Shown here piece by piece: positions 45,124 to 51,125 of a stretch of DNA of 61,933 nucleotides. The notes under the pieces were generated by a model, which was given only the letters and a program-made list of their open reading frames with translations, was not told the DNA's origin and made no database searches. Source of the stretch: Gemmatimonas sp. (lineage in GTDB: Bacteria > Gemmatimonadota > Gemmatimonadetes > Gemmatimonadales > Gemmatimonadaceae). Positions within the stretch are counted from its first letter, which is position 1; every line of letters starts with the position of its first letter. The stretch lies in contig NZ_JAJTHI010000011.1 of the NCBI RefSeq assembly GCF_021298855.1, forward strand, positions 1 to 61,933, given 5' to 3'. The translations under genes were made by a program, and so were the position numbers.

Positions 45124-45317
45124 TCGTGTCTTGGCGGATCGCGCTTCACGGCTGGCACGCGCGCCTCGCGCTCGCGTTCTGACACGTCATTGGCGATGAG
45201 GCCGGGGCTGCCCACGCGACCATTCCAGATGACGCAGCGCTGACAGCACCGCTCGAAGTTGCGGCTCGTCCCACCGTGCTGCATCCTGTCTCTGTCGTCG
45301 GCCGCCGAGCCGGAACC

Positions 45318-48300
45318 ATGCCACTGTCTTCCACCCTGCCGGACCTGACGGACATCGCGAGCGCCGTGCCCGATACCGACGAGGACGCCCTGCACGCCGT
45401 TTCCATTCAGCTGCAGACCTTGGGAGCGTCGCGTGTGCTGCTGGGTGAGCAGGTGCTGGGGATGCACAACGCCCTGCTGTTCCTGCTGGTGTTGCGCATG
45501 GCGTACACCCCCGGCATGGCGGTGGCGCGCGACACGCTGGTGCAGGAGTTCTGGCCCGATCAGGAGGAGTCACGCCAGCGCGGGAACTTGCGGCAGGCGT
45601 TGTACAAGCTGCGCACGATGGGGGTGCGCACGGCGCTGCGTGGGGATGTGGTGCACCTCGACCCCACGCAAGTCCGGCGGAACTTCGCGCTGGCGCCAAG
45701 CGCCGACCACTTCGATCGCGATATCACGCGCGGCACGGAACCGTATGGCAGCTTTCTGCCCGGTGTAACGCCACCGACGGCGCTGCTGCAGGAGTGGCTC
45801 GACGTGACGCGCGAGACGCTGCACGGAGCGATGCGTCGGGTACTGGTGGACGTCCTGCGTCAGCGCCGGGAGCGCGCCGACTGGAAGGGGACGCAGATGG
45901 TGGCGGCGTGGCTGCTGCAGCTGGATCCGCTCAACGAGGACGCGACGCTGGCGCTGGCGGAGTGTGCGGCGCTGTCGGGGTCGAAGGCGGAAGCCGTGGC
46001 CATCCTGGACCGGTATCTGCAGGAGCTGGGCCCGGCCGCCGGCGATATTCGCCTGCCGGCGACCCTGCTGCGGCGGCGCTTCGTGGAGGCGCCCACGCGT
46101 CGGCGCGCGGTGGCGCTGGTGACGGACAAGCATTTCCATGGCCGTGACGTGGAGTTGAGCGAACACACGATGTCGCTGCGCCGCGCGCGCTGGCACGACG
46201 GCAGCGCCGTGCTGCTGCATGGTCCGCCGGGCATGGGCAAGACTCGGCTGATGCTGGAGCTCCTCAAGGTGGCCCAGGTGGAGGGGTACCGTGAGGTGGT
46301 GATGGAGTGTCGGGAGAGCATTACGACGCGTCCGTTGGGGGCGCTGATCGAAGCGCTGCCCGACCTGTTGAGTGCCCCCGGGGCCGCCGGTTGTGCGCCG
46401 GAGAGCCTCACGGTGCTGCGCAAGCTGCTGGGGCCCAACCCCATGGCCGTGGGAACGGAGGAGGCGGCGGAGGCGGCGGAGGCCGACCCCGTGTCACACG
46501 ACGCGCTGTCGGTGACGGAGCGGGTGGAGCTGGCGATTCGCACCATGCGGGCGCAGTCGATTCGTCACGCGGTCGTGGATCTCTTTGCGGCGGTGTCGGA
46601 GGAGCGTCCGATCTTCCTGCTGGCCGAGGATGTGAACTGGCTGGATGACGCGTCGTGGGAGGTGCTGGCGGACGTGATCCAGCGCGTGAACGAGATGCGG
46701 GTATACATCGTGCTGACCTCGCGTTTCGCGACGATTCGCGAAGAGCGACCGGCGCGCCTGCCGACGCCGCTCACCTACCGTCGCCTGCTGCCGTTGACGG
46801 AAGACGCGCTCGTGTCGCTGGTGCGCGGCGCGGCGGACGAGCATGGCGTGTCGGTGCCGGAGGATGTGGAGCGGTGGATCATCCGCGGGTGCGAGGGGAA
46901 TCCGTTGATGTTTCGAGCGTTGCTTGAACACTGGGCCGCCACCGGGAACGCAGATGGGATCCCCCCCTCGCTGAATGCGCTTATCGATCAACGCATCGAC
47001 CGGTTACATGCACACGCTCAACAAGCACTCAACGCGATCAGTCTACTCGGTGCGTTTGCTTCCCTTGAGCGCATTAGGGTAGTGCTTGAGTACCCCGTTC
47101 ACGAACTAGTTCTTTCGCTAGATCAGCTAGAGCTATCCGGCTGTCTGTCAACGAGTAACGCTGGCCTTGTCGTAACCCACAGTCTCGTCAAGCAGGCAGC
47201 ACTCCGTCGAATGTCCCCTCTAATCGAGGCCGCACTACGAGCATCAATTGGCGAGAAATTGGAGGCAGAGTACCTGCGTACTGGCGATTCCGTGACATTA
47301 CATGAGGCGCTGATGCATGTGGAGTTCAGCGGAAGACCGGAAGTACTCCACCAGTTTATCTCCAAATACGACGAGTCTCTCATCGAAGGAGGTCGGCCTA
47401 TTGGCGTAAAGCGCGCGATAAACACCCTCCTCTTTACAACACCGCGCCTGTTCGATGATCGACGCTTTGTGATTCTGCAGCGACGTCTAGACACTCAAGC
47501 AGGAGCATACCGCAGCGCAGTAAGCAGCTATCTCGGGACGATTGAGATGCCTACAGATATTCGTAAGCACAGCGTTCCTGATATCGAAGAACTAATCGCT
47601 ATTGCGGCCTCCGCACTTCGTGCAGACCCATCGATCGATCGGGAGGAACTGGCTAGGTTTTCCAGCGACGTTGCGAATCAAGCGCGTCTGCCTCTAGCGA
47701 CCCGCATACGAGCAGCAGAGGTTGGCCTAACCATCACCGCAAACACCTGCGACAGCAACACCGCAGCGATCTGCTATTCTGCGCTTCAATCGGAGTTACA
47801 AGGAAGCGAATACCCGGACGCTTCTTTGCGCCTTAGGATTTTGTATCACGCCATCTTCGGTGAACTATCTACCGCAGTAGCCGTTGCGCGAGAGATTGTC
47901 GATCGTTGCGAACGCAGGCCGTCCTCCACTACGGTTGCAGAAGACCTCAGCAGAGCTGCGTTCGCCTTCAGACTCTGTGGAGACTGGGAAAAGGCGACTT
48001 CGCTCTTCTCGAAGCACTTCGAGATGGCAGAGCAACTTGGCGCTCGGCGTCTAGGACTGTATTCCGCGTGGCAAATCGCTCAGATCGAGCTAGAGCGAGG
48101 CGATCGGTCTCGCGTTCTGTTCTGGAACAAGAAGCTTGCCGAGATCGTCGCGGAGGAGAACGACCCGATTTCCACGTGCTTCGTCATTGGTCACTTCTGC
48201 CGATGCGCAATCGACGAGAAAGATCAATCATCAGCGCGCCGCTACCTCGAAATCGCCAAAGCTGGTCAGCCGAAGCTTCCTGCGGTGAAAGCCTCTGCCT

Positions 48301-48575
48301 ACGTGATTGCACTTGAACTAGGGTGCGAGCTCTTGAAAAAAGACTGGGAACCCAACGATGCGCTCTTGGAAGTAGCAATCCAGCGTCATCGGCGGACCTG
48401 CCGATTCGCTACTTCTGACTTTCTTACGGCGGTTCTCGCGGAAGCCATGCACCGACGTGGGTACAAGCTACACGCCGCCGAAATGATCGATGACTATACG
48501 AAGAACGCGCGACGAGAACGGGGTCCTCTATCGCGCGCACTGACTCTGATTGCGAATAAGCTTGCCTCTTCCTAG
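45318..48575 (+). CDS. BTAD-AAA transcriptional regulator, compositionally chimeric
   Basis: A 1085-residue regulator. Residues about 20-110 form a winged-helix output-like domain (FWPDQEESRQRGNLRQALYK), about 110-245 a BTAD-type helical domain, then an AAA/STAND ATPase with Walker A LLHGPPGMGKTRLMLEL and Walker B FLLAEDVNWLDDASW. From about residue 620 there is a TPR-like helical array to the end. Such proteins are signal-dependent activators. From near 46960 the base composition falls from about 73% to 48% GC on counted lines while the frame stays open, so the 3' half has a different origin. A GTG at 45276 is an alternative start. Confidence 0.85.
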   Translation: MPLSSTLPDLTDIASAVPDTDEDALHAVSIQLQTLGASRVLLGEQVLGMHNALLFLLVLRMAYTPGMAVARDTLVQEFWPDQEESRQRGNLRQALYKLRTMGVRTALRGDVVHLDPTQVRRNFALAPSADHFDRDITRGTEPYGSFLPGVTPPTALLQEWLDVTRETLHGAMRRVLVDVLRQRRERADWKGTQMVAAWLLQLDPLNEDATLALAECAALSGSKAEAVAILDRYLQELGPAAGDIRLPATLLRRRFVEAPTRRRAVALVTDKHFHGRDVELSEHTMSLRRARWHDGSAVLLHGPPGMGKTRLMLELLKVAQVEGYREVVMECRESITTRPLGALIEALPDLLSAPGAAGCAPESLTVLRKLLGPNPMAVGTEEAAEAAEADPVSHDALSVTERVELAIRTMRAQSIRHAVVDLFAAVSEERPIFLLAEDVNWLDDASWEVLADVIQRVNEMRVYIVLTSRFATIREERPARLPTPLTYRRLLPLTEDALVSLVRGAADEHGVSVPEDVERWIIRGCEGNPLMFRALLEHWAATGNADGIPPSLNALIDQRIDRLHAHAQQALNAISLLGAFASLERIRVVLEYPVHELVLSLDQLELSGCLSTSNAGLVVTHSLVKQAALRRMSPLIEAALRASIGEKLEAEYLRTGDSVTLHEALMHVEFSGRPEVLHQFISKYDESLIEGGRPIGVKRAINTLLFTTPRLFDDRRFVILQRRLDTQAGAYRSAVSSYLGTIEMPTDIRKHSVPDIEELIAIAASALRADPSIDREELARFSSDVANQARLPLATRIRAAEVGLTITANTCDSNTAAICYSALQSELQGSEYPDASLRLRILYHAIFGELSTAVAVAREIVDRCERRPSSTTVAEDLSRAAFAFRLCGDWEKATSLFSKHFEMAEQLGARRLGLYSAWQIAQIELERGDRSRVLFWNKKLAEIVAEENDPISTCFVIGHFCRCAIDEKDQSSARRYLEIAKAGQPKLPAVKASAYVIALELGCELLKKDWEPNDALLEVAIQRHRRTCRFATSDFLTAVLAEAMHRRGYKLHAAEMIDDYTKNARRERGPLSRALTLIANKLASS

Positions 48576-49903
48576 GCTACGGCAGGCGTTCGGACCTTCT
48601 TTCGAATCGACTCCATCATTTGCGTTAGGGAGAGAATCTTTCCGGAATCCGAATAGTCAAAGAGGCGGTTGAAATCAGGCGACTGAAGCAGCGCGTCACA
48701 GATATCCGGATCAAATTGTGTCCCCCGAAACTTTGCCAGCTCTGCACGCACCTCAGTCTCACCCAATGCCTTTCTGTACGGGCGGTCGGTTGTCATGGCA
48801 TCGATGGTGTCGGCGAACATGATGATCCGCGAGGCCAAAGGTATTTCCCGTCCTTTCAGCCGGTCAGGGTACCCCGTTCCGTCCCAGTTCTCATGATGGT
48901 GACGAACTGCGGGTACGATGTCCTGTAGCTCGGAGATCTTCGCAACCAGTTCTGCGCTCTTTACAGGGTGCAGCTCCATGATGGCACGCTCCTCCGGGGT
49001 GAGCCTTCCAGGCTTCATCAAGATCGGAGCGAAGACTTCATGGATCTTTCCGACGTCATGGAGCAGCGCAGCTTTAGAGACCTTTTCGATCTCTTTGGCT
49101 GGAAGACCGATCACCTCGGCGATGATCCGGGAGAATCGTCGAACTCGCTGTGAGTGACCGGAGGTGTACGGATCCCTAAATTCAACGGTCTGCACGAACA
49201 GTTCGAGCAATTCCTTATTTGTGGTCTCTAACTGGTGCTTGGACTGGTAGGTGAGCCGGAGTCCGATGATCAAGGCACAGAGAGTTAACACTCCCCAACC
49301 GCCCCAATCCACGTAAGCGCGCGCAAATCCGTAAACGACGAACACTGCGACAACGTCGTAAAGCACCCCCGCGACGTTGCCTTCGTACCAAAGCCTGATG
49401 ATGCTCTTGCCTTCCGCAAGTCCGACGGCTGCTGCGACAGCGAGGGTGTTCAGCAGCAGGAAGGCAACGACCGCAACGACGTGAGGTAGGGCACGGAACG
49501 TTGGATCAACCTGTAGTGCCTTCCCACCCAGAGCGCCATAGACGGCAATAGATACGCAACCTGCAAAGACAATCTGTCCAACGTTGAACGCTCGCTTGAG
49601 CGCCATCTTTGGCCGGAAGAACTCAGCAATGAGCCAACCGGCTCCGACCATGGCGACCGTGGCCCAAGACGGGTAGAGCACGAACGCGGTCAGGAATGGA
49701 ATAAACGAAACCGCACCGAAAGTACTGCCACGTACTCGATAACTGAGCGCACTGCCGAGTATTGAAACCGCAGTCAACCAAGCGGAGCCTACGAGCAGCT
49801 TGAGCTCGACACTTGGTTGGTACCAATACAAGCCGACAAGCGCTGCCGCAGCAGCGGCAACGATCGCATAAACGTACGCGACTACGCTTGTCTTCATGGA
49901 CAT
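48572..49903 (-). CDS. Membrane HD-GYP domain protein
   Basis: A 443-residue protein. About seven membrane helices (residues 5-220) form a MASE-like sensor. After a short coiled linker (TTNKELLELFVQTVEFRD) comes an HD-GYP domain with ALLHDVGKI and HHHENWDGTGYPDRLKG, plus the supporting FADTIDAMTTDRPYR. HD-GYP domains hydrolyse cyclic di-GMP or related dinucleotides. The stop overlaps the end of the convergent BTAD-AAA gene by four bases. A 23-residue peptide gene lies 37 bases upstream on the same strand. Confidence 0.9.
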   Translation of the reverse strand: MSMKTSVVAYVYAIVAAAAAALVGLYWYQPSVELKLLVGSAWLTAVSILGSALSYRVRGSTFGAVSFIPFLTAFVLYPSWATVAMVGAGWLIAEFFRPKMALKRAFNVGQIVFAGCVSIAVYGALGGKALQVDPTFRALPHVVAVVAFLLLNTLAVAAAVGLAEGKSIIRLWYEGNVAGVLYDVVAVFVVYGFARAYVDWGGWGVLTLCALIIGLRLTYQSKHQLETTNKELLELFVQTVEFRDPYTSGHSQRVRRFSRIIAEVIGLPAKEIEKVSKAALLHDVGKIHEVFAPILMKPGRLTPEERAIMELHPVKSAELVAKISELQDIVPAVRHHHENWDGTGYPDRLKGREIPLASRIIMFADTIDAMTTDRPYRKALGETEVRAELAKFRGTQFDPDICDALLQSPDFNRLFDYSDSGKILSLTQMMESIRKKVRTPAVA

Positions 49904-49940
49904 GGTTTTAGAGACGCCCCGTCAACCTTCTCAACTCAGG

Positions 49941-50012
49941 TCAACCCCAAATCTTGAGGTCAGCGTGCAGCATCGACCAAAGTGCATTCACGAGCTGGGC
50001 CATGAATTCCAT
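49941..50012 (-). CDS. 23-residue microprotein with near-perfect ribosome site
   Basis: The minus strand has AAGGGAGGTGA, six bases, then ATG and a 23-codon frame ending in TGA. The ribosome site matches eight of nine bases of AGGAGGTGA and is the strongest in the window. The product starts MEFMAQLVNALW and ends in DLKIWG: hydrophobic, with two Trp, three Met and likely an amphipathic helix. It lies 37 bases before the HD-GYP start, so it may be a leader peptide, a secreted signal or a small membrane partner. No other gene is seen in 49904-50204; a plus-strand frame there lacks a ribosome site. Confidence 0.55.
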   Translation of the reverse strand: MEFMAQLVNALWSMLHADLKIWG

Positions 50013-50204
50013 CGAACGTCACCTCCCTTCGGGTCAGTCACGTGTGCCCCGCTCGGGACCCCACGTGCTCGATCTAGGTTGGCTCCGCTCCTACTGCTTG
50101 GCCTGCCCGCTCAGCTCCGCTCTAGACGGCTGACGGGGACGTTTGGGATGTCGTCGTGTCGATGACGAATAAGGGTGATGTGTATGGACGCGTGCGTCCG
50201 CGCT

Positions 50205-51125
50205 CTACCGATCGAGGTGCACCCACCGGTTGGTCGCGTCGAGTACGCTCAACACCGCACTCGTTTCCGCGCTCTCCCGGATCTCGCAGCTACCCGTGAG
50301 ACAGACCGGCTCGCGACCGATACGCGCCGATACGCTCACGAACACGAACTCACGATCGAAGGCCTCGATGAGCTTGGCGCCCTCCAGCGACAGGCTCCGC
50401 TCGCCCCCCACCGTGGACTTCATGGCTGTACCGATGGCCAGCAACGTCGCCCGCGCCGCCAACTCGATGCGCGATCGCTCCGATTCCTGCCCCTCGGCCT
50501 CACCGAAATACTCCTGCCCGTCTCGCGACAACGTCACGCGGCACAGTACCCCGCGCGAACGCGAACGCCGCACCTCGACATCCTCGAAAATCAGCAGCCG
50601 ACGGCCAGCCGACAGGTCGGGAGCCGTCGCCACCCCTAGGGACGATCGAGCGCGCCCAAAGGTACCAGACGTGAACTCGGCGGGGACGACATCCGGCGTC
50701 GCCGCCGGTGCACCCGCGGCAGCCGACCCGCCGGAGGGGGTGCCTCCAGCTACGAACGGCATGGGCGCGGACGGGGTGCCCGCCGCCGGCGCCCCGCCGG
50801 CGATGGCACTCAATCCCGCAACCGCCGAGGACTCAGGCGCCGTGTCCATGGCCCGCGGCGCATCGAGCGTGGTCGCCACCGAAACCTTCCGGTGGTTCAC
50901 CCGCAACCCCAGCTGCGCCATCAGCGCGCTCTCGATGTTGCGCACCGTGTTCTTGGGCGGAACCTGGTCGGTGGTGAGCACGTGGATCTCCTCCACGGCC
51001 CCCGACTCGCCCGGCACAATTCGCACCGAAATGACCCCCGGCAGGGTCGCAATGAGCTCCTCGGCGCGACGGAGCGGCAGCACACTGCCGGCGATGGCAC
51101 CGGGGGCCGCCGACGGGGTGCTCAT
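50205..51125 (-). CDS. Hypothetical two-domain protein
   Basis: A 306-residue cytoplasmic-looking protein. An N-terminal alpha-beta domain (VLPLRRAEELIATLPGVISV, NTVRNIESALMAQLGLRVN) is joined by an Ala/Gly/Pro-rich linker (about residues 105-165) to a C-terminal domain (DVEVRRSRSRGVLCRVTLSR, ARATLLAIGTAMKS). The two domains look like small, possibly ligand-binding folds; I do not recognise a family with confidence. Composition is back to the high GC of the chromosome. Confidence 0.65.
   Translation of the reverse strand: MSTPSAAPGAIAGSVLPLRRAEELIATLPGVISVRIVPGESGAVEEIHVLTTDQVPPKNTVRNIESALMAQLGLRVNHRKVSVATTLDAPRAMDTAPESSAVAGLSAIAGGAPAAGTPSAPMPFVAGGTPSGGSAAAGAPAATPDVVPAEFTSGTFGRARSSLGVATAPDLSAGRRLLIFEDVEVRRSRSRGVLCRVTLSRDGQEYFGEAEGQESERSRIELAARATLLAIGTAMKSTVGGERSLSLEGAKLIEAFDREFVFVSVSARIGREPVCLTGSCEIRESAETSAVLSVLDATNRWVHLDR

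What the first reader, a model, noticed from the sequence alone, without database searches (positions are those of the whole stretch)
49903..50012. Microprotein with the best ribosome site of the window, ahead of an HD-GYP sensor
A 23-codon gene with AAGGGAGGTGA six bases before ATG lies 37 bases before a seven-helix HD-GYP gene. A hydrophobic, Trp-containing peptide made in large amounts could be an exported signal read by the membrane domain, a membrane partner, or a leader peptide controlling HD-GYP. Such peptide-HD-GYP pairs are not a system that I know.
Basis: partly seen in the sequence, partly recalled or inferred. Interest (0 to 1): 0.8.

Follow-up and report, generated by a model that had tools for sequence, protein, structure and literature searches.

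The report
Conserved Trp-ended leader peptide before HD-GYP
A tiny gene of 23 codons, set inside a folded stretch of messenger RNA ahead of a membrane-bound signal-degrading enzyme, is kept throughout a whole class of soil and water bacteria (Gemmatimonadota), nearly always ends in tryptophan, and most likely acts as a built-in switch for that enzyme, which was not found described in the papers searched.

Summary
In detail: window 50012-49941 (minus) encodes MEFMAQLVNALWSMLHADLKIWG behind AAGGGAGGTGA, 37 nt before an HD-GYP gene. By itself the ribosome site is no better than chance for 62 kb, but comparison settles the matter. Nearly every scored locus of the orthologous HD-GYP gene in Gemmatimonadales (133 distinct peptides), and most of those checked in other orders of the class, has a 14-39-codon ORF in the same place. 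103 of 115 peptides have Trp in the last two residues, usually in [AGS][DE]xxxWx-stop; dN/dS is 0.35 (0.25 at the C-terminus). The ORF lies inside a conserved structured leader absent from Rfam. A covarying hairpin (P4) caps a helix that pairs the ORF's ribosome site (P3), and a long-range helix (P1) joins the leader's 5' part to the stretch between the ORF's stop and the HD-GYP start. Usually one copy per genome, at this gene. Best reading: a cis-acting leader peptide whose C-terminal Trp slows termination, so that the ribosome at the stop keeps P1 open and HD-GYP on (TnaC-like logic). Structure and selection are shown; stalling is inferred. A secreted peptide sensed by HD-GYP is not excluded, but the sensor folds like an ECF S-component, which points to a small ligand.

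The parts
49941..50012 (-). micro-ORF, 23 codons, MEFMAQLVNALWSMLHADLKIWG-stop; C-terminal ADLKIWG fits the family motif [AGS][DE]xxxWx
   Evidence: selection (dN/dS 0.35; Trp22 and Asp/Glu18 in 23 of 23)
50019..50029 (-). ribosome-binding site AAGGGAGGTGA of the micro-ORF
   Evidence: conserved
50125..50142 (-). 5' arm of long-range helix P1 (ACGTCCCCGTCAGCCGTC)
   Evidence: self score 36.1, swapped 24.8 over 125 sequences
50105..50122 (-). conserved GAGCGGAGCTGAGCGGGC; first GAGCGRAG motif; may pair with the 5' arm as an alternative hairpin (P2)
   Evidence: by eye; not tested separately
50077..50090 (-). ultra-conserved GAGCGGAGCCAACC; 5' strand of helix P3, facing the ribosome site through G.A mismatches
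50037..50068 (-). hairpin P4 (GCACGTGGGGTCCCGAGCGGGGCACACGTGAC), strongly covarying
   Evidence: 97.6% of cells paired against 72.4% shuffled; 8-53% for slid partners
50014..50027 (-). 3' strand of P3: GGGAGGTGACGTTC, overlapping the ribosome site
49914..49931 (-). 3' arm of P1 (AGAAGGTTGACGGGGCGT), starting 9 nt after the micro-ORF stop and containing the G-run before the HD-GYP start
48572..49903 (-). HD-GYP phosphodiesterase gene, 443 aa (true start possibly 49897), catalytic motifs intact
49259..49903 (-). membrane sensor domain, weak Pfam match to MASE9, fold of an ECF transporter S-component

Best explanation
A conserved cis-regulatory leader of the HD-GYP gene. The leader folds into P1, P3 and P4 around the micro-ORF. 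P3 pairs the micro-ORF's ribosome site, so a signal that loosens P3 would let ribosomes in. The ribosome reads the short ORF and slows at the stop because of the C-terminal Trp (usually penultimate) with the acidic residue four before it. Sitting there it covers or blocks the P1 3' arm, whose G-run begins about 10 nt downstream, just before the HD-GYP start; HD-GYP is then made. Without translation P1 closes and HD-GYP stays off. Shown: conservation of the peptide frame, the RNA helices P4 and P1, the order of parts, usually a single copy at this gene. Inferred: stalling, the direction of control, and the signal.
For: Class-wide co-conservation of leader, ORF and gene. Trp in the last two residues in 103 of 115 peptides; where the length varies (14-39) the C-terminal motif keeps its distance to the stop. 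Purifying selection strongest at codons 17-23. P4 and P1 covary; P3-P4 and the whole leader fold better than shuffles (z -3.2 and -3.3). Stop to G-run: median 10 nt, within a ribosome's reach. HD-GYP lacks a classic ribosome site in 89 of 93 loci; a G-run lies a median 13 nt before the start in 64. N-termini can be hydrophilic (MTTTRWWTGILIWG), so only the C-terminus is constant, as expected of an arrest peptide. In TnaC an aromatic penultimate residue (R23F) clashes with the RF2 GGQ loop and strengthens arrest (PMC8429421; PMC10941005). One genome with HD-GYP interrupted by foreign DNA also has a frameshifted micro-ORF (L138).
Against: No ribosome profiling, toeprint or expression data. W is replaced by I/L/V or sits last in part of family f2, looser than most arrest peptides. 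P3 is nearly invariant, so covariation cannot prove it (outer pairs only weakly compensate). P1 also appears in 79% of minimum-energy folds with swapped 3' arms, so only the score test supports it. In family f2 the P1 3' arm is partly C-rich, so simple masking of an HD-GYP ribosome site is not general. L143 keeps leader and ORF but has lost most of HD-GYP.
Confidence: 0.5

Rival explanations
1. The peptide is a trans-acting signal: a short hydrophobic precursor whose C-terminal hexapeptide or heptapeptide (e.g. DLKIWG) is released and sensed by the membrane domain of the HD-GYP protein encoded next to it, like streptococcal ComS/XIP or SHP peptides.
For: Variable, mostly hydrophobic N-terminus and conserved C-terminus with an acidic residue and Trp; strict pairing with one receptor-like gene; ComS of S. 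mutans is a 17-aa precursor and type-II XIPs have a C-terminal WW motif (PMC5131902); peptide C-terminus correlates more with the sensor domain than with the catalytic domain (partial r 0.27 against 0.12; 0.16 against 0.00 for distant pairs).
Against: The sensor folds like ECF S-components, known for vitamins and metal ions; no exporter or peptidase gene beside it was recognised; some N-termini are hydrophilic; the ORF is always locked inside the RNA fold, which a diffusible signal does not need; the correlation may only reflect a faster-evolving domain.
Confidence: 0.25
2. The RNA is the sensor (a riboswitch or RNA thermometer through P3/P4 and the GAGCGRAG motifs) and the micro-ORF only couples translation to HD-GYP; the peptide sequence is of little importance.
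For: Ultra-conserved motifs and covarying hairpin; ribosome site in a predicted helix; reduced synonymous change in codons 2-9 (pS 0.30 against 0.62 in codons 17-23).
Against: Amino-acid selection at the C-terminus and the near-constant terminal Trp are not expected of a mere coupler; no Rfam match.
Confidence: 0.17
3. A type I toxin-like gene: small hydrophobic peptide on an mRNA closed by 5'-3' pairing.
For: Short hydrophobic peptide and a long-range fold-back helix.
Against: Usually a single copy at one locus across a class; no promoter-like site found on either strand; followed by HD-GYP in all but rare cases.
Confidence: 0.04
4. Chance short ORF with a chance ribosome site.
For: The site alone is expected by chance in 62 kb.
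Against: Conservation in over 130 distinct sequences with dN/dS 0.35 in 23 genus-like ones; the exact pattern strong site + ORF + TGG-stop was found 8 times in 395 genomes with no match in the control counts, and at least four of the 8 are HD-GYP-adjacent micro-ORFs.
Confidence: 0.01

Closest known systems
TnaC leader peptide of the tryptophanase operon (E. coli)
   Same: Short ORF of about 24 codons ahead of the controlled gene; key C-terminal residues; bulky penultimate residue hinders release factor 2 (PMC8429421, PMC10941005)
   Different: No sequence relation found; terminal motif is [DE]xxxWx instead of W12-D16-P24; set inside a covarying RNA fold with a closing helix; precedes an HD-GYP enzyme; no known inducer
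ComS/XIP and SHP pheromone precursors of streptococci
   Same: About 17-23 residues, hydrophobic, conserved C-terminus, Trp motif in some, encoded beside a partner (PMC5131902; SHP details from memory)
   Different: Partner is a membrane HD-GYP enzyme, not an Rgg-type regulator; different phylum; embedded in a structured leader
Riboswitches and RNA thermometers that mask a ribosome site
   Same: Conserved helix pairs the ribosome site; covarying hairpin
   Different: No Rfam family matches; the masked site is that of a conserved peptide, not of the enzyme
HD-GYP phosphodiesterases with membrane sensors (MASE9-like)
   Same: HD and HHExxDGxGYP motifs intact; HD-GYP fold
   Different: Sensor domain folds like an ECF S-component; preceded by the leader and micro-ORF

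Membership tests
Ribosome-arrest leader peptide (TnaC-like) | short translated ORF in cis directly upstream of the controlled gene | tested here: met
   position; coding-type selection
Ribosome-arrest leader peptide (TnaC-like) | conserved C-terminal residues at fixed distance from the stop | tested here: met
   103 of 115 have Trp in the last two residues
Ribosome-arrest leader peptide (TnaC-like) | ribosome stalls and the downstream gene responds | not testable with these tools
   needs toeprint, profiling or reporters
ComS/SHP pheromone system | adjacent Rgg/RRNPP-type regulator as receptor | tested here: not met
   neighbours are HD-GYP, a gene without Pfam match, and a convergent AAA/TPR regulator
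ComS/SHP pheromone system | export, processing and re-import of the peptide | not testable with these tools
   needs peptidomics
Rfam-described riboswitch or leader | match to a family at its gathering score | tested here: not met
   14 loci, none; window, nothing in the leader up to E 5
HD-GYP phosphodiesterase | HD and GYP motifs and fold | tested here: met
ECF transporter S-component (fold of the sensor) | S-component fold | tested here: met
   the 22 best rows are S-component or CbiM-type chains, Z 12.5-9.3, next 6.9
ECF transporter S-component (fold of the sensor) | sequence relation and partner ECF module | tested here: inconclusive
   no PDB sequence match; partner genes not sought
Type I toxin-antitoxin | antisense RNA opposite the ORF | tested here: inconclusive
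   no sigma-70-like promoter found, but promoters of this phylum may differ

The most novel reading that the evidence does not exclude
A class-wide family of Trp-ended micropeptides is the ligand or co-sensor of an S-component-fused HD-GYP enzyme, made under control of its own structured RNA: a genetically encoded peptide input to cyclic-dinucleotide signalling in a Gram-negative-type phylum.
Probability: 0.2. Interest if true: 0.92.

Novelty: new variant of a known kind. Interest (0 to 1): 0.75.

Why it matters
Peptide or leader control of cyclic-dinucleotide breakdown was not found in the papers searched. This locus unites a conserved micropeptide, an RNA element absent from Rfam and an HD-GYP enzyme with a transporter-like sensor, kept across a whole class. 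It gives a directly testable system: either a new arrest-peptide switch with a terminal-Trp rule, or a peptide signal for HD-GYP. It also shows that a very short ORF, easily overlooked by gene finders, can be among the best-kept features of a locus.

Tried and rejected
Chance ORF: rejected by conservation. Trp-starvation attenuation: judged unlikely, since usually only one terminal Trp codon is present and it is replaced by Ile/Leu in part of family f2. General intrinsic terminator formed by P1: only 19 of 101 loci have four or more T in a row after the G-run, though the tract is pyrimidine-rich. P1 as simple masking of an HD-GYP ribosome site: not general, because in f2 the 3' arm is partly C-rich. 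Minimum-energy folds as evidence for P1: rejected, swapped arms give it in 79%. Covariation of P3: too invariant to tell. Peptide-sensor correlation: weak and confounded. Pfam and NCBIfam searches with the peptide: nothing. Literature: nothing on such a system.

Full report
Observation. The minus strand holds a 23-codon ORF (50012-49941, MEFMAQLVNALWSMLHADLKIWG) behind AAGGGAGGTGA and 37 nt before a 443-aa HD-GYP gene. The ribosome site is the best exact match in the window, but such sites are expected by chance in 62 kb. Taken alone the finding would be weak.

Conservation. The orthologous HD-GYP gene was sought in 199 related genomes. All 28 other loci of the first set have an ORF in the same place with GGGAGGTGA, mostly of 23 codons. 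Sixty more loci of the family and order were read, then 40 more regions, half of them from the sister family f2, and 65 named database loci, partly the same contigs, all of which have one. This gave 133 distinct peptides. In other orders of the class, with HD-GYP identity 36-42%, most loci checked still have one, often ending in Trp-stop (MWLLSLLFGGTLKW, MQLWALIALLAGKLDW, MLDSIFDFFGETLAVLARGLMNW). L098 in the family and L256, L257 and L259 in the class have none that was recognised. Named relatives are Gemmatimonas and Gemmatimonadaceae.

The peptide. Lengths run from 14 to 39, most often 23. Of 115 distinct peptides 91 have penultimate Trp and 12 have Trp last. The last seven residues fit [AGS][DE]xxxWx in many (ADLKIWG, GDTLSWG, AEGQNWT, ADTLIWG), while the N-terminal part is variable and mostly, not always, hydrophobic. 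In 23 genus-like sequences dN/dS is 0.35, and 0.25 over codons 17-23, where synonymous change is high (pS 0.62); Trp22 and Asp/Glu18 are present in all 23. This pattern is what a translated frame selected as protein would give. A pattern of strong ribosome site, ORF and TGG-stop occurs only 8 times in 395 genomes of the phylum with no match in the control counts; at least four of the 8 (G240, G241, G249, G406) are micro-ORFs already read beside HD-GYP.

The RNA. The ORF lies in a conserved leader. Hairpin P4 (GCA...UGAC) keeps 97.6% of pairs through many double changes, against 72.4% in shuffles and 8-53% with slid partners. The motif GAGCGGAGCC[AG]ACC faces the ribosome site GGGAGGUGACGC through short helices separated by G.A mismatches (P3); 97% of cells pair but they hardly vary, and outer pairs compensate only weakly. 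In the window P3-P4 folds at -37.2 kcal/mol, z -3.2, and the whole leader at z -3.3. A long-range helix P1 joins the 5' C-run to the G-run after the ORF's stop: score 36.1 with the own partner and 24.8 with partners from unlike loci. Minimum-energy folding does not discriminate. The layout C-run, GAGCGRAG motifs, P4, ribosome site, ORF, G-run, HD-GYP is kept in other orders of the class (by eye). No Rfam family matches. A covariance model finds about one copy per genome in 110 of 395 genomes, almost all in the window's own family; those checked lie at HD-GYP except for the cases below and weak or contig-end matches that could not be placed (L130, L132-L134).

The enzyme. HD and GYP motifs are intact and the fold matches HD-GYP structures. 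The membrane domain, predicted alone with pLDDT 90, matches ECF transporter S-components and CbiM-type proteins well above other folds (Z 12.5-9.3, next 6.9), with only a weak MASE9 match by sequence and no PDB sequence match. The HD-GYP start lacks a classic ribosome site in 89 of 93 loci, but a G-run lies a median of 13 nt before it in 64; the G-run begins a median of 10 nt after the micro-ORF's stop.

Natural exceptions. In L138 the HD-GYP gene is interrupted by foreign DNA and the micro-ORF is frameshifted; in L143 leader and micro-ORF are intact but the HD-GYP body is missing. These are single metagenome-assembled cases and carry little weight.

Mechanism. The ORF is always in cis, inside the fold, with its stop next to the P1 3' arm, and only its C-terminus is constant. 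This fits a leader peptide that pauses at termination. In TnaC the residue before the last clashes with the release factor's GGQ loop, and an aromatic residue there (R23F) strengthens arrest (PMC8429421; PMC10941005). A ribosome halted at this stop would hold P1 open and expose the HD-GYP start. The alternative is a peptide signal like ComS (PMC5131902); a weak correlation of peptide and sensor divergence does not decide, and the S-component fold favours a small ligand. Stalling, direction of control and the inducer are untested.

Novelty. Leader peptides and regulatory RNA folds are known kinds. This peptide family, this RNA and their link to an HD-GYP enzyme were not found in the libraries or papers searched.

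Noticed in passing
window 49259-49903 (-): The membrane sensor of the HD-GYP protein has the fold of an ECF transporter S-component (FolT, ThiT, BioY, RibU, CbiM); this may be an unrecognised sensor type for small ligands.
   Followed up: partly
window about 50148-50170 (-): A palindrome of the type TCGTC-N7-GACGA lies about 25 nt upstream of the leader in the genus; possible operator or promoter element.
   Followed up: no
window 50205-51125 (-): The upstream gene (306 aa, ending VLDATNRW...) has no Pfam match, yet its end is seen upstream of HD-GYP in many loci of the order.
   Followed up: no
L015 (G003), around 1178-1388 of the reverse complement: Two tandem copies of the leader and micro-ORF start separated by a run of N; either a duplication or an assembly join.
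   Followed up: no
L143 (G326): Leader and intact micro-ORF (MAFIEAILSALRDTLIW) followed by a different short reading frame instead of HD-GYP.
   Followed up: partly
window 45276-48575 (+): Convergent gene for a 1099-aa AAA/TPR regulator next to the HD-GYP gene.
   Followed up: no
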